A stretch of DNA of 61,417 bases from a virus. Location of the stretch: IMG/VR virus record IMGVR_UViG_3300042888_003765, positions 1 through 61,417 of that record; one strand, written 5' to 3'. Positions 259-25,769 of this stretch are shown in pieces. The notes under the pieces are model-generated. The model had not been told where the DNA came from and made no database searches. It saw nothing but the letters and a program-made list of their open reading frames with translations. The translations under genes were made by a program, and so were the position numbers. Numbering within the stretch: position 1 is the first letter of the stretch; every line of letters starts with the position of its first letter.

Positions 259-1086
259 ATGATAAGTTTTTTTGAGTGGTTGAAATTAAATGAGATGGCA
301 TTGGGTCATACATTTAATCCAGAAAAATCAGGTTATTTTAGTGGCAATGACCAAAAAATAGTGGGTCAAATGTTTCCCAAGATTAAAAGCAAGTTGAAAT
401 CATTTTTAAAAAAACTGGATTTTGTAACAATTCACATGTATTTTGGAATTCCTCCTGTTATGGCGTTTGGAGATAGTGGCGAACAATTTGTTAAAAAATT
501 ACGCCAATATTTCTTTGATGGTGAGACTTTTTATGGAAATAATCTTGGTATAAAAATACCTAAAAGTGATATAGTTTTTGTAAAGCAAGGTACTTTTGCT
601 GATTCTTTAAGTCCTTGGATGATTTTGCATACTTTCGCACATGCTGCAATTGATTCTGTCATAGACGGAACATTTATAAATGTAGATTTTGGTAATTTTC
701 AAAGACCTGCATTAGAAAAGGCGGTATGGTCAGCTATTGCGGCAAACCGTAAATTAAAAAATTTAGGAGTGGGAGAAAGTCTGCTTTACATATTTTTCCC
801 TATGGGTTCTTTAAGAAAATCTATAAAAATGAACAAAGGAGAAAAAGTTCAAAAAGGTTTTGAGCTTAATGATAACGAATTGTTTCGTGAGATGTTTGTT
901 TACTATTTGACAAAGGGTGGCAAGATACCTATTCCTAGTGATTATAAAGAGAAACTTGCTGGTTATGGAAAATCAGAAAGTGAAGTTAGCGAAATTTTAG
1001 CAAGCATACAAGAACTTTCTGATGCGTTTAAGAATATTTTAGAAGCTTGCAGAGGAGATGTGCTTACCGACAGTAGATCATACTAA
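259..1086 (+). CDS. Putative capsid-targeted protein with HxxxH motif, paralogue A
   Basis: The 275-residue protein begins MISFFEWLKLNE|MALG. This fits the N-terminal capsid-targeting peptide shared by many genes here, with a possible prohead-protease cut after LNE. The body is clearly homologous to the protein at 1688-2545 (shared YFFDGETFYG, KIPKSDIVFVK, YREMFVYYLTKGGKIP-type blocks). A central segment, SPWMILHTFAHA (His124, His128), looks like a zincin HExxH with Glu replaced by Thr, so it could be an inactive metallopeptidase-like fold or another metal site. An AAGGA ribosome site precedes the start. I do not recognise the family. Packaging and injection are inferred from the tag. Confidence 0.75.
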   Translation: MISFFEWLKLNEMALGHTFNPEKSGYFSGNDQKIVGQMFPKIKSKLKSFLKKLDFVTIHMYFGIPPVMAFGDSGEQFVKKLRQYFFDGETFYGNNLGIKIPKSDIVFVKQGTFADSLSPWMILHTFAHAAIDSVIDGTFINVDFGNFQRPALEKAVWSAIAANRKLKNLGVGESLLYIFFPMGSLRKSIKMNKGEKVQKGFELNDNELFREMFVYYLTKGGKIPIPSDYKEKLAGYGKSESEVSEILASIQELSDAFKNILEACRGDVLTDSRSY

Positions 1087-1099
1087 ATATTTATTATTT

Positions 1100-1594
1100 T
1101 TACAGAATTGGGTTTGTTACTTTGTTAATGAAGTCTGAGTACTCGATATCTTGGTTTGGTTCTTTGTTAATTATTTTTATTTGGCTGGGGTTAAACACAA
1201 GAACTTCTACCATTCTTCCGTATATCATACCTGTTCCTATTCCCAATACGATTACGGAGTCGTAGCCATCGTCTTTGATTTTTTGGGTTAATTCTTTTGC
1301 GGCGCTTATTTCATTTTTTGGGTATCCCTTTATTTCATATTTTTCGGCTAATTCTTCTTTTCCTTTTTCCCATATGAGTGGGTTGTTGAGAGTTACATGG
1401 CACTTATATATTTTGTGTCCGTAGTATTTGGCGTATCTTGGGTTTGAAGACAAATAAATTCCGTATCCGTAGTATCCGTAATCTGTATTCATTCTTTTGG
1501 GATTTTCTTGAAATTCGTCGAAATCGGCATTTGTGCCGTGATATAGAGTTAGTTCCATTATTGACTCTATTATGAGCCATTGTTTAAATTTCAT
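1100..1594 (-). CDS. ADP-ribosyltransferase-like effector with capsid-targeting N-terminus
   Basis: This 164-residue protein opens MKFKQWLIIES, matching the shared capsid-targeting peptide with a possible cut after IIE. The rest reads as a compact H-Y-E class ADP-ribosyltransferase: LYHGT (His19), then GYGIYLSS (Tyr47) followed by an A-x-x-YG helix, then VEVLVFNPSQIKII near the C-terminus with Glu130 in the catalytic position. Such domains move ADP-ribose from NAD to protein or nucleic acid. T4 packages an ART (Alt) in its head, so the same logic is likely here. The start is 4 nt from a CTAAATA element with no Shine-Dalgarno. It converges on the gene ending at 1086. The target is unknown. Confidence 0.8.
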   Translation of the reverse strand: MKFKQWLIIESIMELTLYHGTNADFDEFQENPKRMNTDYGYYGYGIYLSSNPRYAKYYGHKIYKCHVTLNNPLIWEKGKEELAEKYEIKGYPKNEISAAKELTQKIKDDGYDSVIVLGIGTGMIYGRMVEVLVFNPSQIKIINKEPNQDIEYSDFINKVTNPIL

Positions 1595-1598
1595 GAAC

Positions 1599-1605
1599 TA
1601 TTTAG
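1599..1605 (-). promoter_or_regulatory. Putative leaderless late promoter (CTAAATA)
   Basis: On the minus strand CTAAATA ends 4 nt before the ATG at 1594 and no Shine-Dalgarno is present. Transcription from a T4-type late promoter would start at or next to the initiation codon. Confidence 0.5.
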
Positions 1606-1650
1606 TTTTCAAATTATGTTTTTGTTTTGATAAAATTATTATAAAACAAA

Positions 1651-1658
1651 TGTAAATA
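1651..1658 (+). promoter_or_regulatory. Putative late promoter (TGTAAATA)
   Basis: TGTAAATA lies 29 nt upstream of ATG 1688. The leader resembles that of the paralogue at 259 (TAAATATAAT-R-ATG, then an AAAGGA ribosome site), so the promoter was probably duplicated with the gene. Confidence 0.4.
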
Positions 1659-1687
1659 TAATGATGTTTTGAGTAAAGGATTAAAAA

Positions 1688-2545
1688 ATGAAAAGTTTTC
1701 TTGAGTGGCTCAAATTTAACGAGATGGCATTGGGCAATACATTTGTTCGGAAAGTGAAAAATGCCGATGGAGAGGAAAGAGCCGATATTGGTTTTGGTAA
1801 AAATGACGAAAAAATATTAAATAGAATGTTTCCCAAGATTAAAGAAAAGTTGAAATCATTTTTAAAAGGACTGGATTTCGTTGATATTCACATGTACTTT
1901 GGAATGCTTCCAATTTATGATTGGAATGACACTCCTGAAACTAGGACAGAAAAAGCAAACAAATATTTCTTTGATGGTGAGACTTTTTACGGACATAATC
2001 TTGGTGTAAAAATACCTAAAAGTGATATAGTTTTTGTAAAGGAATCAACTTTTGCGGATTCTCTTACTCCTTGGATGATGTTGCATACTTTTGCACATGC
2101 TGTGTTTGATTCTGTCGAAAAAGGAACATTTATACATGCTGAGTATCCTAAAAAAATAAGGCCTGAATTGATGAAAGCAGTAAATTCATCCTTGGGTATT
2201 ATGAGATATTTGAAAAATAAATTAAGTTCAGAAGAGCTTTACATGTTTTTTCCTATGGGTTCTTTAAGAAAACTTATAGATAAACAGAAGGGGAAAAAAG
2301 TTCAAAGTAGATTTGATCTTATTGAAGACGAGTTATATCGTGAGATGTTTGTTTATTATTTGACAAAAGGCGGCAAGATACCGACTCCTAGTGGTTACAG
2401 AGAGATGTTTAAGTCTAATAAAAGAATGGACAATGAAATTGATGAAATTTTATTGAAAGTACAAAGTCTTTCTGATCAATTAAGAAATGTTTTAGAGGCT
2501 TGTAGAGGTGATGTGGTGATTGATACTAGAAGCAACAAGGGATAG
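1688..2545 (+). CDS. Putative capsid-targeted protein with HxxxH motif, paralogue B
   Basis: The 285-residue protein starts MKSFLEWLKFNE|MALG and is a diverged tandem paralogue of the protein at 259-1086, with a minus-strand ART gene inserted between them. It keeps the TPWMMLHTFAHA motif, so the HxxxH spacing is conserved although the usual zincin Glu is Thr in both copies. That conservation suggests the histidines matter. An insertion (ADGEERADIGFGKN) distinguishes its N-terminal third. AAAGGA precedes the ATG. Its function is unknown. Packaging is inferred from the N-terminal peptide. Confidence 0.75.
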   Translation: MKSFLEWLKFNEMALGNTFVRKVKNADGEERADIGFGKNDEKILNRMFPKIKEKLKSFLKGLDFVDIHMYFGMLPIYDWNDTPETRTEKANKYFFDGETFYGHNLGVKIPKSDIVFVKESTFADSLTPWMMLHTFAHAVFDSVEKGTFIHAEYPKKIRPELMKAVNSSLGIMRYLKNKLSSEELYMFFPMGSLRKLIDKQKGKKVQSRFDLIEDELYREMFVYYLTKGGKIPTPSGYREMFKSNKRMDNEIDEILLKVQSLSDQLRNVLEACRGDVVIDTRSNKG

Positions 2546-2547
2546 TT

Positions 2548-3798
2548 TCAATTTTTTTTCACATATTTTCTTTCTAGTATTTCTCTGGCTTGTATTACAG
2601 CATTGCTGAGTCTTTCGAGGACTTTGCGTTTTATTTCTGGTGTGAGTTGTTTCGTGTATAAATCAAAATCAGGATCTGACTTTAAAGGACTGATATAATT
2701 TTGCGCTTTTGCATCAACAAAAGGTGCCGTAATACCGCTAACAATACCAGTTTTAACATCTCTAAGAATACTTTTAAACTCGTCAAAAAAGTCTTTCATC
2801 CAATTAACAAAAGGAGAATTATCATTTCTTGATGTGTTTGTTAGATTAGGTCTTGGTGCGCCTCTTAGTTGTTGTGCTATAATTTCGATTTGATATTTAG
2901 TTTTTTGATAATCTGTTGAATTGTTGACCAGATCGAATATTTTTTGAACCATTTCTCCAATATTAGCTTCTATTTCCATTTCGTTTGACTTATATGTTTT
3001 AAGGTCTTCGTAATTATATTTATTTCCATATGGTGAATAATATTTATCAGCCCGAATATTGTAAATTAATTTTGGATCAATGCAATGTATTATTTCGTGT
3101 ACTAGCAGTGTTTTTATTTCTTCTTTGTTTTTTCCACACATGTATTTTTCGTTTATATGTACTGTACCTAATATTTTTATTATTTTTGTTTCTTCATCAA
3201 AGTAATATTTAATTTGACGAATACCAATATTTTTACCATAAATAATTTCGTCTCGATGACCTTTCAAATCTGATTGTAATTCACGCATATATTTGCCGTA
3301 TTGTTCGGAATAGTATTTGTCAAAAATTTCAGTTATATTTTTATAATTGTTATCAATAATTTCATCTACTTTTTCTTTTAATTCTAAATAATCTGTTTTT
3401 ATTTCTTCTGTGTTTGCCCATCCTGCTGCGTGTGTCATTGTTTCAGTTTTTTCTGGATCAATTATAATTTTTATGATTTGATTTGGTGTTTGTGGTGTTT
3501 GTAATTGATCTACTTGTTTTTTTATTTCTTCAATTACTGGATCTTTTTGCATTTGATCCCATTTAAAAATTAAGTTTAATCTAGAAATTTCAGGATTCTC
3601 AACATTAGATTTTTTTATATATTTGTTATTAAATTCTACTAAATTCATTTCAAATTTTTTGCCTGTATTCTTAGATTCACAAATTTGGCTCATGATTTCT
3701 GGCAAGTGTTGATCGATTGCTGCTAATACTTCTGGAGGAAGAGTTATGTTTTTCCCTTCGTTGAGTTCTTGTTGATAGAAAAATTGTTTAAAATTCAT
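2548..3798 (-). CDS. Zincin metalloprotease with capsid-targeting N-terminus
   Basis: The 416-residue protein opens MNFKQFFYQQELNE|G, a variant of the shared tag with a possible cut after LNE. Residues 231-240 (LLVHEIIHCI) form a canonical HExxH zinc site (His234, Glu235, His238). Glu residues in SNEMEIEAN (about 273-277) are plausible third ligands, as in gluzincins. The N-terminal half is charged and probably helical. A basic, PFVDAKAQNY-containing tail follows the catalytic domain. If packaged, it would be a protease delivered into the host at infection. The start is 4 nt from CTAAATA without a Shine-Dalgarno. The substrate is unknown. Confidence 0.75.
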   Translation of the reverse strand: MNFKQFFYQQELNEGKNITLPPEVLAAIDQHLPEIMSQICESKNTGKKFEMNLVEFNNKYIKKSNVENPEISRLNLIFKWDQMQKDPVIEEIKKQVDQLQTPQTPNQIIKIIIDPEKTETMTHAAGWANTEEIKTDYLELKEKVDEIIDNNYKNITEIFDKYYSEQYGKYMRELQSDLKGHRDEIIYGKNIGIRQIKYYFDEETKIIKILGTVHINEKYMCGKNKEEIKTLLVHEIIHCIDPKLIYNIRADKYYSPYGNKYNYEDLKTYKSNEMEIEANIGEMVQKIFDLVNNSTDYQKTKYQIEIIAQQLRGAPRPNLTNTSRNDNSPFVNWMKDFFDEFKSILRDVKTGIVSGITAPFVDAKAQNYISPLKSDPDFDLYTKQLTPEIKRKVLERLSNAVIQAREILERKYVKKN

Positions 3799-3802
3799 AA
3801 TT

Positions 3803-3809
3803 TATTTAG
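3803..3809 (-). promoter_or_regulatory. Putative leaderless late promoter (CTAAATA)
   Basis: CTAAATA on the minus strand ends 4 nt before the ATG of the zincin gene at 3798. The intervening bases are AATT and no ribosome site is visible. Confidence 0.5.
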
Positions 3810-3880
3810 AATAATGTTAATTATTTTTTAATGTGCAAGTGAACATTGTCAATATAAAATTTAATTTTCAATTTATTTAT

Positions 3881-3888
3881 TATAAATA
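3881..3888 (+). promoter_or_regulatory. Perfect TATAAATA late-type promoter
   Basis: This is an exact match to the T4 late promoter core. It is followed by a roughly 60-nt leader to the ATG at 3950. The leader contains a 12-codon mini-frame (3902-3937, stop included) and a hairpin (arms 3927-3932 and 3940-3945). Confidence 0.5.
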
Positions 3889-3926
3889 ACATTAAGTTAA
3901 AATGTTTTGGAGGATGCAGATTTATT

Positions 3927-3945
3927 CACGTTGTTGAAAAACGTG
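3927..3945 (+). promoter_or_regulatory. Leader hairpin before the 3950 start
   Basis: CACGTT (3927-3932) pairs with AACGTG (3940-3945), placing a small stem-loop 4 nt before ATG 3950. A mini-frame beginning at ATG 3902 and containing GGAGG overlaps it. This could modulate translation of the downstream membrane protein, but the stem is only 6 bp. Confidence 0.25.
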
Positions 3946-3949
3946 TTTT

Positions 3950-5287
3950 ATGCTTAAAAATATGATAAACAAATATAATCCTAGAATAAATCCATATCTT
4001 GAATTTGTTTACAAAAAGAATTATGGCGTTGTTGACAGTTATCTTTTTGAACAAGATGATGTTCTAACAGGAAATCCTTCACAGGGAGATTTTCAGCAAA
4101 GTGGATCTAATGCACAGCCACAAAAAATACCAAAATTTGATGCTGGAAAAATTCTAGGTTCCTTCACATCTGGATTTAAGAAGTCTTATGATGCTTCCAG
4201 TGTTTTTAGTCCAGAAGAAATACAGATGTATGAGGGCATGAAGAGTAAAATTGATCCATATGTTAAAAAGGCTATCGACTTTTGTAATAACCCTACTATG
4301 CAATTTTTGTTGAAATATCTTAAAATTTCATTGCCTCTTGGCGTTGCTGTAACCGCTGCTGCGCTTGTGGGCGGATCTGTACCAATGGTTACAGTAGTTT
4401 ATTTTGTGCAGAAATATTTTGCCTCTGCTACGGCTTGGTTGATAGGACTAAAACATCATAAAGAAGAAAAGCATGAGTCTTTTAGTTTTAGTGATTATTA
4501 TCATAGAAGACTTTTAGAAGAAGGCATTTATGACGACATAACTGCTGGAGCGGGAATGGTTGGTGGAGCATTGGGCAATGTCGCTGGTAATGTTTACAAG
4601 TATGGTAATTTAGCTCGTAAAAATTTAGTATCAATGGGATCTTCTGCGCTATCAGCGGCATCATCAATAGGATCTTCTGCCAAAAAATTATTTTCAGACA
4701 TATGGAGTTCAATGAAGTCGAATCCTTATTCTACTACTGTTACTGCTATGAAAATAAGTATTGTTGTTGCTGTTGCCGTTGCATCTGGAGGAGCAGCCGC
4801 AACTGCATATAAAATGTTAACATCACCAGAAGGTTTGTCAACTATTTCTGGCATTGTTGCTACTATGGGAGTTGCTAGTGCTGAAGAAGCAACTAAAACA
4901 CTTGCAGATGTTGGCCATCAAATGGCAGCAGGTCATGCAATCGATGCTGCTGGTCATTCAATCGATGCCGCTGGCCATGCAGGTCATGCCGCTCATGCTG
5001 CTGGCCATGCTGGTCATGCCGCTCATGCCGCTGGCCATGCAGGTCATGCCGCTCATGCCGCTGGCCATGCAGGTCACGCTGCTCACGCTGCTCACGCTGC
5101 TGGCCACGCTGCTCACGCTGCTGGCCATGCTGCTCATGGTCATGGTTTGGCTCATGATTTATTACACATGGGTACTCATGGAGCGTCTGATGCTGCGGCA
5201 CACGTTACTGATGCCAGCAAAAAGAATCATCCTGAATTAGCAAAATTGGCCAAAACAATTCATGGATTTACCTTAGGTGGAACTTAA
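3950..5287 (+). CDS. Membrane-segment protein with internal tag and His/Ala/Gly repeats
   Basis: The 445-residue protein has a hydrophobic block at about residues 124-165 (SLPLGVAVTAAALVGG...), a tag-like segment FSFSDYYHRRLLEE|G at about 180-193, and a second hydrophobic block at about 266-292 (KISIVVAVAVASGGAAA). Residues ~322-405 are a low-complexity run of GHAAHA/AAGHAGH units with dozens of histidines, possibly metal-binding or helical. The order hydrophobic block, tag, hydrophobic block matches the protein at 16710-18173, so the two are likely distant paralogues. A packaged, membrane-inserting protein is a reasonable hypothesis. No known family is recognised. Confidence 0.7.
   Translation: MLKNMINKYNPRINPYLEFVYKKNYGVVDSYLFEQDDVLTGNPSQGDFQQSGSNAQPQKIPKFDAGKILGSFTSGFKKSYDASSVFSPEEIQMYEGMKSKIDPYVKKAIDFCNNPTMQFLLKYLKISLPLGVAVTAAALVGGSVPMVTVVYFVQKYFASATAWLIGLKHHKEEKHESFSFSDYYHRRLLEEGIYDDITAGAGMVGGALGNVAGNVYKYGNLARKNLVSMGSSALSAASSIGSSAKKLFSDIWSSMKSNPYSTTVTAMKISIVVAVAVASGGAAATAYKMLTSPEGLSTISGIVATMGVASAEEATKTLADVGHQMAAGHAIDAAGHSIDAAGHAGHAAHAAGHAGHAAHAAGHAGHAAHAAGHAGHAAHAAHAAGHAAHAAGHAAHGHGLAHDLLHMGTHGASDAAAHVTDASKKNHPELAKLAKTIHGFTLGGT
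4950..5145 (+). repeat. Tandem GCTGGCCATGCAGGTCATG-type repeats (coding)
   Basis: Short, imperfect tandem units encode GHAAHAAGHAGHAAH-like sequence inside the 3950-5287 gene. Long open frames on other strands and frames here are by-products of the repeat. Confidence 0.8.
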
Positions 5288-5304
5288 AATTCATTGAGAT
5301 TTTT

Positions 5305-6759
5305 TCAAATAATTTGATCTAATTCTTTTGTTTCAAGTTCATTAACGATATTAATATGTGTACCCATAAAGTTATAGGTTATGTCTAGTAATATCTTTTT
5401 TTGTGCATATGTTATCAGTCCGTATTCATAATTTTCTTCATGGTTAAATTGGTATAACATTCTATTTTCTGGATATTCTATATTTTGTGTGAATAGGTTA
5501 AAGAATTGATTTTTTATTCCCTTATATGATATATTTACACCTTTGAATTGTTTGTCATCTGTTTTCTGATGAGTCATTAAAAAGTCTATTACTATATCAT
5601 CTGATGGATTTATGTTATTTTTCTTGAGCATATAATATACTTTTGCTGGGTAAAAATCTCTATTATTGTTAAATAGCGCATTGTCTGCTTCCATTGCGAA
5701 CTTTCTTAGCCATGTTTTATCTCCTTCATTTTCTTTTTTTATTTGTTCTTCTTTTATTTTCATTTTATTTTGTATTTCTGAGTTATTTTTACCTTTTAAT
5801 TCACGACCAATATATTTGAAACCATATTTCCATAAAAATCTTTTCATTTCAAGTGAGTCATAAATATTATCTTTATTTGATGCGAAAATATTAAATGATG
5901 ATGATGGAATTATAATTTTACCTTTCATTGATTCTTTTTCAGGTGAATTTTGTATTGTTTCTTCAAACTGAAAGTATGAGTTTTCAAAGAAATTCATTTT
6001 TATGGCTCTGTTCATAGCCGTTTTTACAAGATCTAAGTATTTTGGTTCTTCTGGTTTGCCCAAGTATCCTACTCCTGCTGATCTGATTAATTCTTTAACG
6101 GAAGGAGATGCAATAGATGCCAAGTAAGCTGTTGAGGCATTATCTCTTGTTTGCAATGCCTTATCGAATTCATTTGGAAGATATTCCAATATAGATCCAT
6201 TGTTGTGGATTAACTGTGTCAGTTCGTTTACTTTATATACAATTTGATTAACATTAAATATTGGTGTTTGTTCTTTTGTTTTTTTGATTAATTGTAATAT
6301 TTCTTTCCATGGATTTTGATTGCTATATATGTCCATAGATACTTCTATAATGTTGTCTTTATCTTTATTTGTAAAATTATGCCATATGTCGAAAAATTGA
6401 TTATCTTGCCAATTTCTTGAGAATCCTGTTCTAATTCTTCTTTCTTCTGGAATTTTTTCAAAAGTCTCTGGATATTTTTCTTGCATTATTTCTATAAAAA
6501 TTTCTGTTCTCATATGTCTTTTTAGAACTATAAAAGACATATCGTCGATAATTTCGTCGATTACTTTGTTTCCTTTGTCGATTATTTTGTCTTCAATTTC
6601 CTTGTCATATTCTGTTCTTTGGGTTGATAATTCTCCATGGATGTTCGGCATTTTTTGTATTGCTGCAAGAGTATAAAAGTCATAGAACTCTTGAGCCTTA
6701 AATTCCAATAATGGTTTCTTATGGTTTTTAAAAAACCATTCTTTAAAATTCATTTTCAT
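5305..6759 (-). CDS. Unknown protein with capsid-targeting-like N-terminus
   Basis: The 484-residue protein begins MKMNFKEWFFKNHKKPLLE|F. It has the FKEWFF core of the shared tag, followed by LLE as the best protease site. The rest is charged and Lys/Glu/Asn-rich, with no motif I recognise and no membrane segment. The ATG is 6 nt from ATAAATA with no Shine-Dalgarno, and it is divergent from the ART-like gene at 6808. The two promoters and starts form an 18-bp inverted repeat. It converges on the membrane-segment gene ending at 5287. Confidence 0.7.
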   Translation of the reverse strand: MKMNFKEWFFKNHKKPLLEFKAQEFYDFYTLAAIQKMPNIHGELSTQRTEYDKEIEDKIIDKGNKVIDEIIDDMSFIVLKRHMRTEIFIEIMQEKYPETFEKIPEERRIRTGFSRNWQDNQFFDIWHNFTNKDKDNIIEVSMDIYSNQNPWKEILQLIKKTKEQTPIFNVNQIVYKVNELTQLIHNNGSILEYLPNEFDKALQTRDNASTAYLASIASPSVKELIRSAGVGYLGKPEEPKYLDLVKTAMNRAIKMNFFENSYFQFEETIQNSPEKESMKGKIIIPSSSFNIFASNKDNIYDSLEMKRFLWKYGFKYIGRELKGKNNSEIQNKMKIKEEQIKKENEGDKTWLRKFAMEADNALFNNNRDFYPAKVYYMLKKNNINPSDDIVIDFLMTHQKTDDKQFKGVNISYKGIKNQFFNLFTQNIEYPENRMLYQFNHEENYEYGLITYAQKKILLDITYNFMGTHINIVNELETKELDQII

Positions 6760-6765
6760 AATGTT

Positions 6766-6772
6766 TATTTAT
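6766..6772 (-). promoter_or_regulatory. Putative leaderless late promoter (ATAAATA)
   Basis: ATAAATA on the minus strand, then AACATT, then ATG 6759. There is no ribosome site. Confidence 0.5.
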
Positions 6773-6794
6773 CAAAAAATTAATTCTTTTTTCA

Positions 6795-6801
6795 ATAAAT
6801 A
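6795..6801 (+). promoter_or_regulatory. Putative leaderless late promoter (ATAAATA)
   Basis: ATAAATA, AACATT, then ATG 6808. It has the same element and 6-nt spacing as the starts at 6759, 8413 and 9805. Confidence 0.55.
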
Positions 6802-6807
6802 AACATT

Positions 6808-8394
6808 ATGAACTTTAAACAATGGTTGATTTTATCTGAAGAACTGTATACACAGAATAACACTGCTACTATATTCCATAGAACAATTTTTGAATATGTA
6901 CGACAAATGATGAACGATGGATTTCGAGCAGGTGAGGGTGATTTTCATGGACCGGGACTTTATACCACTTATACATTAGAAGGTACAACAAATTTAGGCT
7001 ATGGAGATTATGTTGTTAAATTAAAAGTAAATAATTTAAATAATTACTTTGTTCTTGAGCCAGATGTTGCCAAACAAATACATGGAAATAATTGGAAATT
7101 AAAAGATCAAGCAAGAATTCTTAAATTGACATTAAAATTAACTGATGAACAATGGCAGAAATACCAAAAAATAAGCGAAGATGGAGAATTTGGAAGTGCT
7201 GCTGCATCAAGAGCATTAAAAGATGATGAACATTTTTTATGGGAACATAAATGCAAAGGTATTGTTTATAATGGAGCGCAAGACGGCAAATGTATATGTG
7301 TGTATGCACCTTATGAAGGACTTAAGTTTTTGGCATATGCATATGCACCAACACCTACGACTGTAGATTTTATTGAGAAAAATTGGATTAAATCTGGTCA
7401 AGGTGTAAGTATTAGATCAATATCTGATCTTAAGTTCCCAAATGAGAAAATTGGTTTTACTTCAGTTGAAAAACAATATGACCTTGAAGAAGAAAAAGTT
7501 ATTCCTTCACAAATTTTAGATGATGTTCGCAAAAGTGAATATGTAAAATTAAGATTTTATATGAAAAAAAATAAATTAACTGGCGATAATGTTTTTCATT
7601 TGCTTCTTGGCGCACCTGACAAAGAAAAAATGGCAGAAATATTAGGTTCAGACAATATTAATAAAATAAATCGTGAATATGTAAGATTTTTGCTTGATAG
7701 CGCATCTAACAGACAGGAAATGATAAATTTAATAATTAAATATAAAACAGAATTTTCTGGTGAAGATGTTCATAATTTGCTTAGTGGTGCATCTGACAAG
7801 GAAAAAATAGCAAGAATATTAGGTCAAAATAATATTGATAAATTAACTGTTCGTCATGTTCATAATTTGCTTAGTGATGCATCTGACATAGAAGAAATGG
7901 GAAGAATATTACGTCAAAATAATATTGATAAATTAACTGATGGTCATGTTCATAATTTGCTTAGTGGTGCATCTGACAAGGAAAAAATAGCAAGAATATT
8001 AGGTCAAAATAATATTGATAAATTAACTGTTGGTTCTTTTTATGGTTTGCTTAGTGGTGCATCTGACAAAGAGAAAATAGTAGAAATATTAGGTCCAGAC
8101 AATATTAATCAATTTTCTGATCATCATGTTTATTATTTGCTTAGTGGTGCATCTGACAAAGATCAAATGGCAAGAATATTAGGGCAAGAAAATATTGAAA
8201 AATTATCTAGCGATAATGTTCATAGTTTGCTTTATAGAACACTTGACAAAGAGAAAATGGCAGAAATATTGGGTCCAAAAAATATCGCTAAATTATCTGA
8301 CGATTATGTTAAATATTTTATTGATAATGCAAAAAATCCAGAAGAAATGGCAAGAATATTAGGTAAAGAAAATATTGAAAAAATACACAAGTAA
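6808..8394 (+). CDS. ART-like packaged effector with C-terminal 30-residue repeats
   Basis: The 528-residue protein starts MNFKQWLILSE|E, the clearest form of the capsid-targeting peptide. Residues ~12-185 resemble a mono-ADP-ribosyltransferase fold: IFHRT (His24), GPGLYTT (Tyr52), and GKCICVYAP in the place of the last catalytic strand, where I do not see the usual Glu. From about residue 250 on come about nine 30-residue repeats (consensus DKEKMARILGxxNIxKLxxxxVxxLL), probably a helical solenoid for target binding. It is first of three tandem genes with the same tag and repeat type. Translation appears leaderless. Enzyme activity is uncertain because of the missing Glu. Confidence 0.75.
   Translation: MNFKQWLILSEELYTQNNTATIFHRTIFEYVRQMMNDGFRAGEGDFHGPGLYTTYTLEGTTNLGYGDYVVKLKVNNLNNYFVLEPDVAKQIHGNNWKLKDQARILKLTLKLTDEQWQKYQKISEDGEFGSAAASRALKDDEHFLWEHKCKGIVYNGAQDGKCICVYAPYEGLKFLAYAYAPTPTTVDFIEKNWIKSGQGVSIRSISDLKFPNEKIGFTSVEKQYDLEEEKVIPSQILDDVRKSEYVKLRFYMKKNKLTGDNVFHLLLGAPDKEKMAEILGSDNINKINREYVRFLLDSASNRQEMINLIIKYKTEFSGEDVHNLLSGASDKEKIARILGQNNIDKLTVRHVHNLLSDASDIEEMGRILRQNNIDKLTDGHVHNLLSGASDKEKIARILGQNNIDKLTVGSFYGLLSGASDKEKIVEILGPDNINQFSDHHVYYLLSGASDKDQMARILGQENIEKLSSDNVHSLLYRTLDKEKMAEILGPKNIAKLSDDYVKYFIDNAKNPEEMARILGKENIEKIHK
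7560..8390 (+). repeat. About nine 90-bp coding repeats
   Basis: The repeat unit encodes 30 residues with the core ILGxxNIxKL and VxxLLxxAxDKE. Several adjacent units are nearly identical in DNA (for example around 7770-7860 and 7950-8040), indicating recent expansion. Confidence 0.85.
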
Positions 8395-8471
8395 TTTATC
8401 TAAATAAACATTATGAACTTTAAACAATGGTTGATTTTATCTGAAGCGATAACTGTTGATGGAAAAGAATT
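8345..8471 (+). repeat. 127-bp perfect direct repeat, copy 1
   Basis: This segment is identical to 9737-9863. It spans the 3' end of one repeat gene, the CTAAATA promoter, and the tag plus the first codons of the next gene. Confidence 0.9.
8400..8406 (+). promoter_or_regulatory. Putative leaderless late promoter (CTAAATA)
   Basis: CTAAATA, AACATT, then ATG 8413. It lies inside the 127-bp direct repeat, so promoter and tag are duplicated together. Confidence 0.55.
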
Positions 8472-9786: not shown

Positions 9787-9863
9787 TTTATCTAAATAAA
9801 CATTATGAACTTTAAACAATGGTTGATTTTATCTGAAGCGATAACTGTTGATGGAAAAGAATT
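9737..9863 (+). repeat. 127-bp perfect direct repeat, copy 2
   Basis: Identical to 8345-8471, at an offset of 1392 bp. It is a ready substrate for unequal recombination that would add or remove one whole effector gene. Confidence 0.9.
9792..9798 (+). promoter_or_regulatory. Putative leaderless late promoter (CTAAATA)
   Basis: CTAAATA, AACATT, then ATG 9805. It is identical to the copy before 8413. Confidence 0.55.
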
Positions 9864-11010: not shown

Positions 11011-11061
11011 TTAATCATTTATTGTTAATTGAATAAAAATTTTATTATCTTGGGCCGATTT

Positions 11062-11535
11062 CTATGCTTTTTTTGCATTTGCTGATTTATTTTGTATATA
11101 TTCAATTGCTATATTGTTAGCGAATCCCTTCATATTTTCTGGTGTAACTGATTGTGGGTTGGCCGCAATTTTTTGCAATCTGGTTTGCACGAGTTGTAGG
11201 ATTTCGTTTTTTGCTAATTGACTGAGCATTCCTGTTTTTTCGTCCCATAGTGAGTCATTTATGTCGAATATTTCTGCATTTGCTACACCTCCTCTTGTGG
11301 AGTCGGGTAGAGACATAGCTTGTTGTATTAGTTTTCCTGCGTCTTGACGATTTTTGATGAGGTTGAAAATTTGTCCAGCTATTTGTCCTGCTTGTATTAT
11401 TGAATCTATTCCCAATAATCCTGTGACCATTCCTGCTGCTTGGCCAGCGACTCCTTTTGCAATTTGTCCTACTGTGTTTGTTTGTGTGATATTTGCTTCA
11501 CGCATTTGAACATAATTTGAGAATGAAAGTTTCAT
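11062..11535 (-). CDS. Small Gly/Ala-rich protein with capsid-targeting-like N-terminus
   Basis: The 157-residue protein opens MKLSFSNYVQMRE|ANIT, a tag variant also seen in the nucleotidyltransferase at 24300 (LFSRYFRIRE). Residues ~22-60 are rich in Gly, Ala and Ile (GQIAKGVAGQAAGMVTGLLG) and could form an amphipathic or membrane-active helix. The rest is Gln/Asn-rich and helical. The start is 4 nt from AATACATA with no Shine-Dalgarno. The function is unknown; a small internal head protein like T4 IPI-III is a fair analogy. Confidence 0.65.
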   Translation of the reverse strand: MKLSFSNYVQMREANITQTNTVGQIAKGVAGQAAGMVTGLLGIDSIIQAGQIAGQIFNLIKNRQDAGKLIQQAMSLPDSTRGGVANAEIFDINDSLWDEKTGMLSQLAKNEILQLVQTRLQKIAANPQSVTPENMKGFANNIAIEYIQNKSANAKKA

Positions 11536-16709: not shown

Positions 16710-18173
16710 TCACTTTAATTTGATGATATTTTTACCGTCAAATTTCCATTCAGGTGTTCCATCTGAACCGTAGAACATATGATCACTCTTATTGTAATAG
16801 TTGGTGGTAGGAAGGTTTCCGCCAAACTGAGAAGTATCTGTTCCATGAGGTAAAGAACTCATTTTCAGGCTATGATTATTTCCTCCAAAAGCACGTTTGA
16901 TTGCACTGAATAAACTTCTTGTTTCAGCTTTGTCTTGGAGGTCGGCAAGTGATCTTCCAAATCTATCATAACCAGTTGGTCTGTCGGCAGCATTTTTAAT
17001 TTCATCGGCAAGTCTTTGCTTATCAATATCACTATCAGGAATGAACTTATGACGGTGATCTATTGGAGGTTCGTTTCCAGTTTCATTGTCTATTCTTCCA
17101 GATTGAAAACCATGAACTGGTCCCGGTGATGGTGGTCCTTCTTGTGCTTGGTCAAAGTCGCCAGATGATTCGCTACCATCTGAAAAGTCGCCTGATCCTT
17201 TTTCAAGAGCTATATTGCTAACAGTGTTATGAATTTCTTCTGCTGGCACATTTGCAATTACTGATGCTATTTTATCTGATACAGCTTGAACAAGATCATG
17301 GGAAATTTTTCCAACAAAGCCACCTGTGGCCATAGACACTCCAACTATTGCGGCCATTTTAACTGCTTCTCGTGGATTTTTAGTTATAAATTGAAAAATT
17401 TCACCAATACGATCTTTAAGTGCAACTAAAAGATTTTTGAAGAAACCATAAACGCCGCCAGTCATTCTTCCTAAGAATTTACCAGCACCTTCCCAACTTT
17501 CATCTATTTCAAGCCATTCTTTAAAAGAAATATGTTCTATTTCTAGTTTTTGATTAGAAAAAGTAGTTCCTGTTAAGTTTTTTCCATATCCAGTTGTTGC
17601 TGCAAAATTATCAACACTTACAGGTTTTTGAGGAAATGTTTTAACTTGAGTTGGACTAGCCATTGGACTTGGACTAGCCATTGGACTTGGACTAGCCATT
17701 GGACTTGGAGTTCCAGTTACTGGAGTTGGACCCGCCATTGGAGTTGTTGGAGGTGTTTTTTGATTAGCGGGAATATTAGCATTTTTATTATTTCCTGCTG
17801 CTAGATCAAAAGACATGTCAACTAATCCTCCGACTCCTTTGCTAATTGCTAGATTTAAATATTTTCTAGAAAAATACATAGCTGCTATCATTGGCATAGC
17901 GGAAGCGCCGCCAGAAGCTCCTGCCATAACTAGAGCCAATGTTACAGGCAAAGACAATCCAGTATTTTTGCTTAAATAATCAGCTAAACCTTTTGTTTTT
18001 TGTATTAATAATTGAGCAGCACCTTCTAAATGATCAAAACTTTTTCCTCCAAATTCAGATCCTTGATCGAAACCTTGTCCAAATCCAGTAAAAAATTTAG
18101 AAAAAGATTCATCATACATTTCTTCAAAATCATCTGAAATATTTCTTTTATAATATAAGTCTAATGTATCCAT
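16710..18173 (-). CDS. Membrane-segment protein with internal capsid-type tag
   Basis: The start MDTLDLYYKRNISDD (18173) is preferred over an ATG 21 bases upstream, because a perfect TATAAATA lies between them and ends 5 nt before it. The ~487-residue protein has a hydrophobic block at about residues 76-110 (SLPVTLALVMAGASGGASAMPMIAAMY), then a Pro/Thr/Ser linker with PSPMAS repeats, then HISFKEWLEIDE|SWEG (about 208-223), an excellent internal copy of the tag. A second hydrophobic block follows (VKMAAIVGVSMATGGFVG). The layout matches 3950-5287. A packaged, possibly membrane-inserting protein is inferred. Confidence 0.7.
   Translation of the reverse strand: MDTLDLYYKRNISDDFEEMYDESFSKFFTGFGQGFDQGSEFGGKSFDHLEGAAQLLIQKTKGLADYLSKNTGLSLPVTLALVMAGASGGASAMPMIAAMYFSRKYLNLAISKGVGGLVDMSFDLAAGNNKNANIPANQKTPPTTPMAGPTPVTGTPSPMASPSPMASPSPMASPTQVKTFPQKPVSVDNFAATTGYGKNLTGTTFSNQKLEIEHISFKEWLEIDESWEGAGKFLGRMTGGVYGFFKNLLVALKDRIGEIFQFITKNPREAVKMAAIVGVSMATGGFVGKISHDLVQAVSDKIASVIANVPAEEIHNTVSNIALEKGSGDFSDGSESSGDFDQAQEGPPSPGPVHGFQSGRIDNETGNEPPIDHRHKFIPDSDIDKQRLADEIKNAADRPTGYDRFGRSLADLQDKAETRSLFSAIKRAFGGNNHSLKMSSLPHGTDTSQFGGNLPTTNYYNKSDHMFYGSDGTPEWKFDGKNIIKLK
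17655..17710 (-). repeat. Three tandem 18-bp repeats encoding PSPMAS
   Basis: GGACTTGGACTAGCCATT is repeated within the linker of the 16710-18173 gene, giving SPMASPSPMASPSPMAS. It is a disordered hinge that probably varies in length. Confidence 0.8.
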
Positions 18174-18178
18174 ACAAT

Positions 18179-18186: not shown

Positions 18187-18240
18187 GATGCCATTAAACT
18201 TTTAACAAAGAAAATTGTTTTTTAATATGCTATTTTTTCA

Positions 18241-19296: not shown

Positions 19297-19329
19297 AAAC
19301 TAAGCACATCGGTCGATGTGCGTTAGTTT
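19297..19329. terminator. Bidirectional hairpin between convergent genes
   Basis: AAACTAAGCACATCG and CGATGTGC-G-TTAGTTT form a ~15-bp stem with one bulge and a GT loop. It lies between the plus-strand small gene (stop 19291) and the stop of the minus-strand ART-Nudix gene (19328-19330), overlapping the latter. Confidence 0.7.
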
Positions 19330-20779
19330 AATATTGACTGTTTAATTGTTTAAGATAGTTTTTATTTATTTCTTCATCAGAAAGAATAGGTTCTGATACT
19401 TTTTCACTTATGGCTTTAAGTTTTTCTCCTGCATTTTTGATTAATGCTGTTAGTCCAAAGTGTTTTGGTTCCAATTCAATTAGTTCATTGTATGTGACCC
19501 ATCTATCTTTTCCTGTTGTTTCCCATTCACTATCTTTTTGTGCTTGCGGGTTAAATTCTTCCCTTACAATTCCAAGGAAATTATAATAGTGAAAATCACA
19601 AACATCGTCTTTGTATATGAATAAATTTTCTAATTTAATTGAACCAGAAAAACCTGACTCTTCTTCTAATTCTTTTGTTGCATGAATTTTAAATGCTTCT
19701 GGTGTTTGAAGAAGTTCTTCGTGAGATTTAATTCCAAAATTGACCAAATCTCTAAACAATATACCTCCTCCAAATATTCCATATGTATTTGGTTGCATAA
19801 CTTGTGCGCTTCTGAGATTTGGAAGAAATCTTTTTGTTTTTTCGCAAAAAGGCAAAATGCCTGCTCCAGAAATTCCCCAATATTTTCTTTTGCATTCTTC
19901 TGGTATTTCTTTTATTTCTTTTGGTATAGTTTCATCAACCCAATCATCACCCTTTAGAACAAGTATTTGTTTTACTTTTAGCGGTTTTTCTCCTGTATAT
20001 TTAATGGTTAAACTTTTTTTGCCGTAGTTTGTATTAAACCACCAAGCCTCTAGTTTATGGTGCAATGTTGGATTTGCGTCTTGATGCAATTGATAAAGAC
20101 GGGAAATATTAGGAGCCCCATCCATATCTGCATCTCCTTCAAGACCAATTCTCAATTTTGGTATTCTTTGCTTATTTTCTGGATCATCAGTAATTGGATT
20201 AAAAGATACTTGTTTATCATCAAAAGTTGGATTTGATAAATCGTATCCTTGTATGGTGCCTTGGCGTTTAACTTTCATATCACGAAGAACATCATCAGTT
20301 CTAAAATCTCTTTGAAAGTATTCTTTTGTTTTTGGTTTATAATAAGCTTTTCCTAGTTTTTTTAGTTTTTCTATATTACCGGGATGTTTTATCAATTGGA
20401 TAATTGGACTTTGTGCATTTTTTTCAGAGGAAACTTTTTCAATTTCGATATCATAATCCCATTCATTAAAATCAATTTGTGGAACTTCAACCACTACTAC
20501 CATTGGACTTCCATCACTTGATCCAGATATCGCCATATCTCTGTGACTTCTACCTTTTGCGTGTTTTTTTGCATCATCAATTCCATTTGGATCAGTCCTG
20601 ACAAAAAATCCTCCTCCTTGTCCATGTCCATGTCCTAAAGGAAGTGCTCCATCTCTCTGAAACGATTTAAGGTATGAGTCCTTTGGACCAGTTGTTGCTC
20701 CGTGGTATAACAGGAATGGTCCTTGAACAATAGATGTAAGTTCTTCTGCAAATAACCATTCACGAAATGAAATATTCAT
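19328..20779 (-). CDS. Fusion of ART-like and Nudix hydrolase domains with capsid tag
   Basis: The start MNISFREWLFAE|ELTS is chosen because it recreates the shared tag and sits 5 nt from CTAAATA; an ATG six codons earlier breaks this pattern. The 483-residue protein has an ART-like N-terminal half (FLLYHGATTG, His26; GGGFFVRTDP with Phe instead of Tyr). The C-terminal half has a Nudix box, E-x7-KELEEESGF, at about residues 378-394. ARTs add ADP-ribose or NAD-RNA to targets, and Nudix enzymes cleave ADP-ribose or NAD caps. Joining both in one putatively injected protein is unusual. Which partner is active, and on what, is unknown. Confidence 0.75.
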   Translation of the reverse strand: MNISFREWLFAEELTSIVQGPFLLYHGATTGPKDSYLKSFQRDGALPLGHGHGQGGGFFVRTDPNGIDDAKKHAKGRSHRDMAISGSSDGSPMVVVVEVPQIDFNEWDYDIEIEKVSSEKNAQSPIIQLIKHPGNIEKLKKLGKAYYKPKTKEYFQRDFRTDDVLRDMKVKRQGTIQGYDLSNPTFDDKQVSFNPITDDPENKQRIPKLRIGLEGDADMDGAPNISRLYQLHQDANPTLHHKLEAWWFNTNYGKKSLTIKYTGEKPLKVKQILVLKGDDWVDETIPKEIKEIPEECKRKYWGISGAGILPFCEKTKRFLPNLRSAQVMQPNTYGIFGGGILFRDLVNFGIKSHEELLQTPEAFKIHATKELEEESGFSGSIKLENLFIYKDDVCDFHYYNFLGIVREEFNPQAQKDSEWETTGKDRWVTYNELIELEPKHFGLTALIKNAGEKLKAISEKVSEPILSDEEINKNYLKQLNSQY

Positions 20780-20784: not shown

Positions 20785-20791
20785 TATTTAG
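20785..20791 (-). promoter_or_regulatory. Putative leaderless late promoter (CTAAATA) in a 9-bp inverted repeat
   Basis: CTAAATA, AGTTT, then ATG 20779. CATAAACTT (20777-20785) and AAGTTTATG (20796-20804) are inverted arms enclosing most of the element. Confidence 0.5.
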
Positions 20792-20831
20792 AAACAAGTT
20801 TATGAATATTTTTATTTTTGGTTATGATTTA

Positions 20832-23338: not shown

Positions 23339-23353
23339 AATATAAAATAGTAA

Positions 23354-23698: not shown

Positions 23699-23713
23699 TT
23701 GCCTCCAATAGGA

Positions 23714-24265
23714 TCAGAACTCGTGCATGTTACCTGTTACTGCATCATGTATAATTATTCTTTCGATGGTTGATTTTTTTTGTTTTAATTCTTTTGCTAG
23801 TTCAGAAAATTCTTTTATATGTTCTGGTCGATCTTCCCATATTTTTAAAACATTATATTTTGGACTCATTAGTTTAATTAAATTATTTTTTTTAATTTCA
23901 AATATTGTTGATCCAACAGAACCATGTTGTCCAGAAAAAAAATAATGATCAAAAATCATGTCATTGTATTTTAATATTTGAATTATTCTATTTTTAAAAA
24001 AATATGGTCTACCAGTCATTAGGACTACGGTGGAATTTTCATCTGCTGAATCTAATTTTTGATGATTAACAACATTGTTGACATACCAATTTTGATCTGG
24101 TTTTTCTGGAACAACAGGAGGGGACAACGATTCTTTTCGTCCCCACCAGCCTTTAAAGGGCCATTTTTTTCCAGTTGATTTTTCATAGAGTTGCTCGCCT
24201 AATTCTTTATTAGGCGAGTGAAATAAAGTACCATCAAAATCATAAATCATTAGACTTTTTGGCAT
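23714..24265 (-). CDS. HAD-fold, Swiss-Army-Knife RNA-repair-like protein
   Basis: The 183-residue protein starts with the HAD motif LMIYDFDGTLFHSP (Asp9 nucleophile, Asp11). The cap-region GWWGRKESL is typical of the HAD family linked to RNA repair (Swiss Army Knife type), followed by VVLMTGRPYFF (motif II) and KIWEDRPEHIKEF (acidic motif). It is probably a phosphatase, possibly on RNA or nucleotide ends. The polyA/CCA-type nucleotidyltransferase next door and the kinase at 50377 fit a nucleic-acid end-processing theme. Confidence 0.75.
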   Translation of the reverse strand: MPKSLMIYDFDGTLFHSPNKELGEQLYEKSTGKKWPFKGWWGRKESLSPPVVPEKPDQNWYVNNVVNHQKLDSADENSTVVLMTGRPYFFKNRIIQILKYNDMIFDHYFFSGQHGSVGSTIFEIKKNNLIKLMSPKYNVLKIWEDRPEHIKEFSELAKELKQKKSTIERIIIHDAVTGNMHEF

Positions 24266-24299
24266 TTCCGATTCTTTCTGTTAATGTGTGAATCGAATT

Positions 24300-25769
24300 T
24301 TAACATTTATTATTTTTAATTGTATCTTGCCAACGATTCGTTAGCAAGAGTTTATTGATAGAATCAAATTCATTTCCAACTGGTTCTCTTCCTAAAGCAT
24401 GAATATAAATTGGATTAATTTTTTGAACACCAAAGGCATCAATGTTATGACTATTGAGGTCATCACCGTTGAAATTCATGAAATTATCAACTTCATGGCT
24501 ATAGTTGTTGGTAACGTGCATCCACTCTTTAATTTTAGATTTTGTTAAACCAGTGTGGCTTTTTATCATATTGTAAAATTCTGATGAATCGAATTTGTTT
24601 TTACCCCACTGATAAAATTTAACCAGATAAGAAATATCATTTGCTTCTTGTTTGTTCCATCCGCCAGCAATTAGAAGATCTTTTACATCGTTTGGGTTAT
24701 TTTTTCTTAGTACCCAAGCACAAGCCATCCAACGGTCAGACCTTAGATCGGCAGGTATTTCGCTGGGATCAAATTCAATGTTTGGGAACATAAGTCCCAT
24801 AAGCCCTGTTGAATGATATGTGTTTAAAAATTTCTTGGCATCAACATCAGGATTTTCTAAGCCTTTAACAAATTCATCTTTCATTTGTTTTGGATCAATG
24901 CTGGAAAAAATTTCATTTGAATCAATTTTCTTGTTGTATTTTTCGGGGAATTTGCCTTTGCCGTAACGATTGAAATGATTGACCATTCTGAAAATGGTGA
25001 GTGGATCTTCTTCCATTCTTTCACCAAATTTTTCCCCAACAACCTTTAGTTCTCCTGATTTAAGGTGATGAGCGCCGCCAAATGGATCGACTAGATCGCT
25101 ATTTTCTCCATCAGCTTTGGTCAATGGAATATACATGGCATTGATTGTTAAGTCACGATTGGAGGCATCTTCTTCAATGCTGGATGCCATTTTAGCATCT
25201 TCTGGATTAAAGTTTTTACTTTTTGGTGATTTAGATAAAGTTGAAATACGAAAAGGTTGACTTTTGACAACAGCCAGTATTTCCATTTCTTTGCCACGCT
25301 TGTCCCAGCGGCTTGCATAGAAAATTTTTCCACTCTCTACTGTATTGGGCAACTTATCATTTTTTGGTTTATCGCCTTGTGATTTTACTTCTTTAAAGCC
25401 AGCGTTTTTAAGAATCATGCGTATTTCACTGGGAGTTGCATCTGTGACAAGATCATAATTTTTTGGTGTTTTGCCAACAAGGTGATCTCTGACAGCACCA
25501 CCAGTTAAATATAATGATTTCTTTTTTAGTTGTGGCTCAACTTCTCCCTTGTTTTTTTCAATTGTGGTGTAGCCTAAACCAACTTTATCTGAATTAACAA
25601 ATGCTTTGACAATTTTAGCTAAATTAGCATGATTAGACTTATCGATAACAAATGGTAAAAACTCATTATTTCCTTGTTTTTTTTGAAGCTTAACGTGTGA
25701 AGTTACTGTGTTAGAAGAATTTTCTTCACTTTCTTCACGAATTCTAAAATATCTGGAGAATAGGCTCAT
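24300..25769 (-). CDS. PolyA polymerase/CCA-type nucleotidyltransferase with tag-like start
   Basis: The 489-residue protein begins MSLFSRYFRIRE|ESEEN, close to the tag variant of 11062. The head domain follows: LYLTGGAVRDHLVGK (Gly90-Gly91) and TPKNYDLVTDATPSE at about residues 101-115, where the usual catalytic Asp-x-Asp reads Asn-Tyr-Asp. Then come EEDASNRDLTINAMY, which binds the nucleotide, and DPLTIFRMVNHFNRYG of the neck. It should add nucleotides to RNA 3' ends if active; the first Asp being Asn makes that uncertain. AGGA precedes the ATG, after a roughly 28-nt leader from ATAAATA. Confidence 0.8.
   Translation of the reverse strand: MSLFSRYFRIREESEENSSNTVTSHVKLQKKQGNNEFLPFVIDKSNHANLAKIVKAFVNSDKVGLGYTTIEKNKGEVEPQLKKKSLYLTGGAVRDHLVGKTPKNYDLVTDATPSEIRMILKNAGFKEVKSQGDKPKNDKLPNTVESGKIFYASRWDKRGKEMEILAVVKSQPFRISTLSKSPKSKNFNPEDAKMASSIEEDASNRDLTINAMYIPLTKADGENSDLVDPFGGAHHLKSGELKVVGEKFGERMEEDPLTIFRMVNHFNRYGKGKFPEKYNKKIDSNEIFSSIDPKQMKDEFVKGLENPDVDAKKFLNTYHSTGLMGLMFPNIEFDPSEIPADLRSDRWMACAWVLRKNNPNDVKDLLIAGGWNKQEANDISYLVKFYQWGKNKFDSSEFYNMIKSHTGLTKSKIKEWMHVTNNYSHEVDNFMNFNGDDLNSHNIDAFGVQKINPIYIHALGREPVGNEFDSINKLLLTNRWQDTIKNNKC

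What the first reader, a model, noticed from the sequence alone, without database searches (positions are those of the whole stretch)
259..25769. An arsenal of putative capsid-packaged, co-injected effectors sharing one N-terminal tag
At least twelve otherwise unrelated proteins start with a short peptide of the form M-x-F-x-x-W/F-L/F-x-x-x-E: MNFKQWLILSE (three genes), MKFKQWLIIE, MISFFEWLKLNE, MKSFLEWLKFNE, MNISFREWLFAE, MKMNFKEWFF...LLE, MKLSFSNYVQMRE, MSLFSRYFRIRE, MSRHAINSWLAE and MSKFLNWI...LYE. T4 internal proteins (MKTYQEFIAE) and Alt carry an analogous capsid-targeting sequence, cleaved by gp21 after (L/I)XE. The bodies include ARTs, a zincin, a nucleotidyltransferase, a kinase and unknowns, as expected for injected takeover or counter-defence proteins. 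The number and range are far beyond T4.
Basis: partly seen in the sequence, partly recalled or inferred. Interest (0 to 1): 0.93.

Follow-up and report, generated by a model that had tools for sequence, protein, structure and literature searches.

The report
Packaging-tagged effector arsenal in huge phage
A huge uncultured virus of bacteria appears to mark more than a dozen different enzymes with the same short address label so that they are loaded into the virus head, have the label cut off, and are probably delivered into the next cell together with the viral DNA.

Summary
All twelve peptides are true N-termini. A rule taken from T4 capsid-targeting sequences (aromatic-x-x-aromatic, then hydrophobic-x-Glu) hits 13 of 54 window genes, 0.5 expected (P about 2e-15); one hit is false, and one listed peptide (MSRHAINSWLAE) fits only loosely. 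The bodies form about ten unrelated families, not twelve. The window is a fragment without a head cluster. Relatives (gp6 48-83% identical, up to 595 kb) supply it: a gp21-type prohead protease, gp22, a gp23 whose propeptide ends at the same [LMIF]-x-E site, and a tagged small protein near the portal, where T4 has core genes 67/68. Further findings: (1) tagged genes often carry a TAAATA box 3-8 nt before ATG; (2) a DNA scan for box plus tag core returned 98 ORFs, 86% with the predicted Glu site (28% control), in 40 families; (3) tagged genes fill a hypervariable island beside a syntenic backbone; (4) tags come and go between orthologues; (5) a two-unit family carries the tag internally. Best reading: a T4-type packaging signal expanded into an injected arsenal of ADP-ribosyltransferases, NUDIX, RNA-repair enzymes and many unknowns. 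Packaging, cleavage and injection are inferred; no proteomics exists. New variant of a known kind.

The parts
259..294 (+). N-terminal tag MISFFEWLKLNE| of 275-aa protein 259-1086 (unknown family; HTFAH, zincin-like without the Glu, noted by eye)
   Evidence: no orthologue in relatives
1565..1594 (-). tag MKFKQWLIIE| of 1100-1594, ART-PolyVal domain; TAAATA box at 1599-1604
   Evidence: Pfam PF18760 E 9.6e-19; tag; box
1688..1723 (+). tag MKSFLEWLKFNE| of 1688-2545, paralogue (61%) of 259-1086
3757..3798 (-). tag MNFKQFFYQQELNE| of 2548-3798 (HEIIH, possible zincin); TAAATA box at 3803-3808.
   Evidence: weak SprT-like match E 0.034
6703..6759 (-). long tag MKMNFKEWFFKNHKKPLLE| of 5305-6759 (unknown); TAAATA box at 6766-6771
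   Evidence: same length class as T4 IPI (19 aa)
6808..6840 (+). tag MNFKQWLILSE| of 6808-8394 (ART-like N-terminal domain by motif, 30-aa helical repeats); TAAATA box at 6796-6801
8413..8445 (+). tag MNFKQWLILSE| of 8413-9786 (ART-like domain plus repeats); TAAATA box at 8401-8406
   Evidence: AF2 pLDDT 70 with weak matches mostly to ART folds
9805..9837 (+). tag MNFKQWLILSE| of 9805-11010, tandem paralogue of 8413; TAAATA box at 9793-9798
11497..11535 (-). tag MKLSFSNYVQMRE| of 11062-11535, Gly-rich hydrophobic 157-aa protein
   Evidence: orthologue in G002 tagged MNLSFYDYVFMRE|
20744..20779 (-). tag MNISFREWLFAE| of 19328-20779, ART-like N-terminal half (by motif) fused to NUDIX C-terminal half; TAAATA box at 20785-20790
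   Evidence: phrog_1198 NUDIX E 5.5e-8; orphan insertion in a syntenic block
25734..25769 (-). tag MSLFSRYFRIRE| of 24300-25769, tRNA nucleotidyltransferase
   Evidence: Pfam PolyA_pol 7.2e-23; tag kept in all eight relatives aligned, linker variable
26687..26722 (+). variant tag MSRHAINSWLAE| of 26687-28009, conserved protein of unknown function with long disordered linker
   Evidence: W and, in 7 of 8, the Glu conserved; AF2 low confidence
50377..50427 (+). tag MSKFLNWIKNKDAILYE| of 50377-51099, polynucleotide-kinase-like P-loop kinase
   Evidence: AAA_33 2.7e-15, phrog_505 PNK; tag also in G002, G003, G008 orthologues
23714..24265 (-). HAD phosphatase matching the other half of T4 PNK; untagged here, tagged in G002, G003, G008/G009, W01
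   Evidence: phrog_415/505; orthologue N-termini
17499..17531 (-). internal tag ISFKEWLEIDE| between two hydrophobic units of 16710-18194
   Evidence: conserved between the units in the family members compared
4481..4522 (+). internal tag FSFSDYYHRRLLEE| between two units of 3950-5287
259..11535 (.). hypervariable island of tagged genes next to SAM synthetase (12381-13508); the same slot in relative G002 holds a different set of tagged genes

Best explanation
The peptide is a T4-type capsid-targeting propeptide. Late in infection the tagged proteins are made, their N-terminal amphipathic tag binds the prohead scaffold core, and they are enclosed in the prohead. The gp21-family protease, whose own substrate gp23 carries the same [LMIF]-x-E site, then cuts after the Glu and frees the mature protein, which stays in the head with the DNA and is ejected into the next host. 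The payload is a fast-changing arsenal: ADP-ribosyltransferases, an ART-NUDIX fusion, a CCA-adding enzyme, polynucleotide kinase (in relatives also the matching phosphatase) and many unknowns, most likely acting in the first minutes as host-takeover or counter-defence factors, including repair of cut tRNA. Shown: motif, enrichment, Glu site on held-out data, association with protease, scaffold and capsid genes, turnover of bodies, gain and loss of tags. Inferred: scaffold binding, cleavage, presence in virions, injection and the activity of each body.
For: Enrichment 13/54 vs 0.5 expected, P 2e-15, with a T4-derived rule; all ten relatives analysed are enriched under both rules. gp21 (PF03420) E 1e-26 to 1e-29 in five relatives; gp21-gp22-gp23 cluster with gp23 site QRL[MFI]NE|[VI] and a tagged small protein near the portal. 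Spacing equals T4 IPIII targeting residues 4 and 7, processing residues 8 and 10 (PMC9026906); T4 N-termini checked. Held-out scan for box plus M[KN]F..W: 84/98 ORFs have the hydrophobic-x-Glu site vs 28% in internal F..W controls, P 1e-32; short chance ORFs 6/23; 40 families behind one tag. gp21 also found in 7 of 14 large records from that scan. Synonymous codons in tags roughly follow genome usage, so selection acts on protein. Tag kept on every tRNA-nucleotidyltransferase orthologue aligned while the linker diverges, and gained or lost on the HAD phosphatase. Island turnover. Pfam/PHROG identities.
Against: No proteomics of any member; no cultured relative found. The window lacks gp21-gp23. 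A gp21-bearing jumbo phage with virion MS, RaK2, shows no such tag expansion over 100 kb, so the tag does not follow from having gp21. Several bodies have no recognisable function, and the ART call for 8413/9805 rests on weak fold matches. Some relatives (W01, G013) carry many chance hits (27 observed vs 13 expected with the strict rule in W01).
Confidence: 0.84

Rival explanations
1. The tag loads proteins into the prohead as extra core or internal structural proteins that stay behind or act in assembly; they are not injected effectors.
For: One tagged protein sits next to the portal gene where T4 has its core genes 67/68; 26687 is a strongly conserved tagged protein.
Against: Most tagged bodies are enzymes or orphans with rapid turnover between close relatives and effector-type domains (ART, GNAT, NUDIX, NADAR, tRNA repair), unlike scaffold proteins.
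Confidence: 0.1
2. The peptide is a different protein-level address, such as membrane association, phage-compartment import or a chaperone site.
For: The tag is short and amphipathic, and a similar one occurs inside two-unit hydrophobic proteins.
Against: Low hydrophobicity, max 8-residue mean Kyte-Doolittle 1.75, so it is not a signal peptide; a fixed hydrophobic-x-Glu site is not needed for such signals but is present in 86% of held-out cases; gp23 carries the same site at its likely processing point.
Confidence: 0.05
3. The shared 5' end is a nucleotide-level signal (promoter or translation-initiation context), not a protein signal.
For: Many tagged genes have TAAATA 3-8 nt before ATG.
Against: Codon use in tags roughly follows each genome, e.g. 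G013 TTC 0.70 vs 0.71; many tagged genes lack the box; the tag also occurs internally; the Glu lies up to 19 codons in.
Confidence: 0.01

Closest known systems
T4 internal proteins IPI, IPII, IPIII (capsid targeting sequence)
   Same: Short N-terminal peptide, aromatics three apart, hydrophobic-x-Glu at 10 or 19 residues, gp21-type protease, diverse bodies with a shared tag.
   Different: Here about 13 tagged genes in 61 kb and tens in larger relatives, mostly enzymes or large proteins, in a hypervariable island, with a proximal TAAATA box that T4 IP genes lack, and internal tags.
T4 Alt, head-packaged ADP-ribosyltransferase
   Same: ART delivered from the head is the expected behaviour (PMC9026906, PMC5512222).
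   Different: Window ARTs carry the IP-type tag, whereas T4 Alt begins MELITELFDE; the one Pfam-recognised ART is ART-PolyVal, not the Alt family.
Polyvalent proteins (Iyer et al. 2017, PMC5512222)
   Same: Overlapping domain repertoire (ART-PolyVal, GNAT), inferred injection, and homologous domains: the 8413 domain recurs inside 860-1109-aa proteins of other phages.
   Different: There several activities are fused in one chain; here each domain is a separate gene with its own packaging tag.
SPN3US / phiKZ ejection proteins and prohead-protease propeptides
   Same: Many head-packaged ejection proteins processed by a phage protease (PMC5694885).
   Different: Propeptides there are often over 100 residues and cut at phiKZ-type motifs such as SxE, AVE or ALE; phiKZ (50 kb tested) shows no such tags.

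Membership tests
T4-type capsid-targeting sequence (CTS) proteins | N-terminal 10-19 aa propeptide with two aromatics three residues apart | tested here: met
   13/54 genes vs 0.5 expected by T4-derived rule; lengths mostly 8-19
T4-type capsid-targeting sequence (CTS) proteins | hydrophobic-x-Glu processing site at the end of the propeptide | tested here: met
   84/98 held-out ORFs vs 28% control
T4-type capsid-targeting sequence (CTS) proteins | same phage encodes a gp21-family prohead protease, gp22 scaffold and processed gp23 | tested here: met
   gp21 met in relatives G002, G011, G012, G013, W01, with gp22/gp23 read in G002, G011, G013 and W01; not in the 61-kb fragment itself
T4-type capsid-targeting sequence (CTS) proteins | different bodies share only the tag | tested here: met
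   about ten families in the window; 40 families in the scan
T4-type capsid-targeting sequence (CTS) proteins | cleavage in the prohead and presence of mature protein in virions | not testable with these tools
   needs virion MS
T4-type capsid-targeting sequence (CTS) proteins | injection into the host with DNA | not testable with these tools
   needs infection experiments
T4-type late-promoter control of tagged genes | TATAAATA -10 box and gp55-type sigma | tested here: inconclusive
   related [ACG]TAAATA box enriched at tagged genes, exact TATAAATA not; gp55-family match in G013 and W01 (E 3.5e-8, 7.4e-8), none in five other, partial records
Polyvalent proteins | two or more disparate domains in one polypeptide | tested here: not met
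   apart from the ART-NUDIX protein 19328, the tagged proteins of the window with a Pfam/PHROG match show a single recognised domain
Signal peptides / membrane targeting | hydrophobic core of about 8 residues | tested here: not met
   maximum 8-residue mean Kyte-Doolittle 1.75 or less in all tags

The most novel reading that the evidence does not exclude
A portable 5' cassette of about 50 nt, a late-promoter-like TAAATA box almost abutting the start codon (possibly leaderless) plus capsid tag, turns any captured gene into virion cargo. In this lineage of huge phages it has built hypervariable cargo islands, a virion-delivered RNA-repair kit (polynucleotide kinase, HAD phosphatase and CCA-adding enzyme on separate tagged genes) and polyproteins with an internal tag that the prohead protease splits.
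Probability: 0.45. Interest if true: 0.88.

Novelty: new variant of a known kind. Interest (0 to 1): 0.77.

Why it matters
Which phage proteins are injected is usually unknown without proteomics, and earlier surveys inferred head packaging of ARTs from gene fusion or neighbourhood (PMC9503650). A tag that can be read from sequence, with an independent cleavage-site check, gives a list of predicted injected effectors for a whole uncultured lineage of huge phages, most of them with no known family, and points to counter-defence activities delivered at time zero. The prediction is directly testable by fusing these tags to a reporter in T4.

Tried and rejected
Chance match to a loose motif: rejected by internal-position backgrounds, T7, phiKZ and RaK2 controls and the held-out scan. 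Signal peptide: rejected on hydrophobicity. Nucleotide-level signal: rejected on codon use and internal copies. Sequence-profile search of the 8413 ART-like domain and of 26687 against PDB: nothing significant. AF2 of 26687: mean pLDDT 47.5, not used. T4 gp55 by BLAST: nothing; by profile: weak but significant in two relatives. Phage protein searches for 259, 2548 and one scanned ART-like protein: no match. Looking for MS support in RaK2: that phage lacks the tag expansion. Supplementary tables were not available.
Full report
What was checked. I wrote a rule from T4 rather than from the window: in IPIII the residues that govern targeting are 4 and 7 and those that govern processing are 8 and 10 of the ten-residue propeptide (PMC9026906), and T4 IPII and IPIII begin MKTYQEFIAE while IPI begins MKTFKEF...ITE. 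The rule (aromatic-x-x-aromatic in residues 2-11, then [LIVMF]-x-E within 12) hits 13 of 54 window genes where 0.48 are expected from internal positions of the same proteins (P 1.8e-15). With an automatic start caller the same rule finds all three T4 IPs among 7/144 T4 genes, 1/46 in T7 and 0/58 in 50 kb of phiKZ; a slightly wider rule finds only a handful of chance hits in 100 kb of the gp21-bearing jumbo phage RaK2. One window hit (23354) is a false positive and one listed peptide (26687) fits only loosely; 2548 is an extra true case. The bodies form about ten unrelated families because 259/1688, 8413/9805 and the C-terminal repeats of 6808/8413 are related.

Where it lies. The window is a 61-kb fragment of an uncultured contractile-tailed phage with T4-type baseplate genes (gp6, gp25) and a gp2-like end protector. 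gp6 relatives reach 595 kb (LR756511, called W01 here), 533 kb (G013) and 323 kb (G011); the most useful long relative is G002 (137 kb, gp6 83%). The window has no gp21, but five relatives do, at E 1e-26 to 1e-29, in a cluster of portal, small tagged protein, 650-aa protein, gp21, gp22, gp23 (gp22, gp23 and portal named here by position and by resemblance to T4). The gp23 propeptide ends QRL[MFI]NE|[VI][SA]TDTGD in the four relatives aligned, the same site type as in the tags, and the small tagged protein near the portal (MKTFQQYLNIKE|, MKTFSQFVGLKE|, MKSFQEYLKDNNSVSE|) occupies the region of the T4 core genes 67/68.

A held-out test. I noticed that tagged genes often carry [ACT]TAAATA 3-8 nt before the start codon: 7/13 tagged vs 1/41 untagged in the window, 14/25 vs 4/163 in G002 (P 2e-11), 15/62 vs 24/986 in W01 (P 6e-10), 6/34 vs 4/736 in G013; it is not significant in G003, G004, G008, G009 and G011. 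The T4 IP genes do not show it. I then scanned viral contigs for the box followed by ATG and codons for M-[KN]-F-x-x-W, without asking for the Glu. Of 98 ORFs of 60 aa or more, 84 (86%) have hydrophobic-x-Glu by residue 18, against 28% for internal F-x-x-W controls (P 1e-32) and 6/23 for short chance ORFs; the 84 proteins form 40 families once the tag is removed. A few of the 98 come from the window's own phage or the relatives used before, so the test is nearly but not fully independent. Locus L295 holds five such genes in a row. gp21 was found in 7 of 14 large records from this scan. Phe and Glu codons in the tags roughly follow genome usage, so the constraint is on protein.

Modularity. The window backbone from about 14 to 61 kb is largely syntenic with relatives, but almost none of the tagged genes at 0.2-11.5 kb has an orthologue (exceptions: 11062 in G002, and distant matches of 6808, 8413, 9805); the same slot beside SAM synthetase in G002 is filled by a different set of tagged genes, many with their own box. 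The tRNA nucleotidyltransferase keeps its tag in all eight relatives aligned while the following linker varies from a few to about 25 residues. The HAD phosphatase next to it is untagged in the window and in G004 but tagged in G002, G003, G008/G009 and W01. A hydrophobic two-unit family (16710, 3950 and homologues) has a tag-like site at the unit boundary, which I read as a polyprotein cut in the prohead; this reading is inference.

What is carried. Window bodies: ART-PolyVal (1100, E 9.6e-19), tRNA nucleotidyltransferase (24300, E 7.2e-23), PNK-like kinase (50377, E 2.7e-15), NUDIX fused to an ART-like half (19328), possible zincin (2548, weak), and ART-like domains in 6808, 8413 and 9805. 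The AF2 model of the 8413 domain (pLDDT 70) matches most closely a domain of the cyanophage A4 pre-ejectosome (E 0.012), the anti-CRISPR protein 6kyf, and then many PARP/ART folds, all weakly. The HAD protein and the kinase match the two halves of T4-type polynucleotide kinase, which with the CCA-adding enzyme suggests a tRNA-repair kit; in the window itself only the kinase and the CCA-adding enzyme are tagged. Tagged proteins of relatives include AdoMet decarboxylase, NADAR, GNAT, NUDIX, ankyrin and tRNA-ligase phosphodiesterase matches, but most have no Pfam family, and about a third or more of the hits in the largest genomes are chance.

Interpretation. The evidence fits a T4-type capsid-targeting system greatly expanded in an uncultured lineage of huge phages. 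Motif, site, association and modularity are shown here; scaffold binding, cleavage, virion presence and injection are inferred by analogy with T4. The box may be a late promoter with its start near the ATG; a gp55-type sigma profile matches in G013 and W01, but no transcript data exist, and the exact T4 box TATAAATA is not enriched. Apart from LR756511, all GenBank phage relatives by capsid protein are below 60% identity, and 26687 matches only LR756511 among 50,697 phage records, so no cultured member is available for proteomics. Within the papers searched I found the T4 CTS described for a few proteins and head packaging of ARTs inferred by fusion and neighbourhood, not a tag-based arsenal of this size; most subscription papers were not searchable.

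Noticed in passing
upstream of tagged genes, e.g. 8401-8406, 9793-9798, 6796-6801: TAAATA box 4-6 nt before ATG without a Shine-Dalgarno, suggesting leaderless late transcripts; in 84 scanned cases T is nearly absent just before the box and A/T is almost fixed 17-19 nt upstream of it.
   Followed up: partly
16710-18194 and 3950-5287: Family of two hydrophobic Gly-rich units joined by an internal packaging-tag motif; possible polyprotein split in the prohead.
   Followed up: partly
6808-8394, residues about 264-528, and 8413-9786: Tandem 30-residue repeats (LLSGASDKEKIARILGQNNIDKLTVRHVHN type) after ART-like domains, shared between otherwise different tagged proteins.
   Followed up: no
L216 (1109-aa ORF) and L218 (860-aa ORF): The ART-like domain of 8413 recurs inside long proteins that contain KQGVAE[GA] motifs, perhaps protease sites in polyproteins of other phages.
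   Followed up: no
W01 (LR756511) 242240-243133: Second, diverged gp21-family protease gene away from the head cluster.
   Followed up: no
12381-13508 in the window; G002 84358-85485 and 83588-84115: Phage-encoded SAM synthetase beside the cargo island, and in G002 a tagged AdoMet decarboxylase, hinting at SAM depletion as a packaged activity.
   Followed up: no
29408-38674: Single 3088-aa ORF between the end-protector-like gene and baseplate genes; much shorter (1640 aa) in W01.
   Followed up: no
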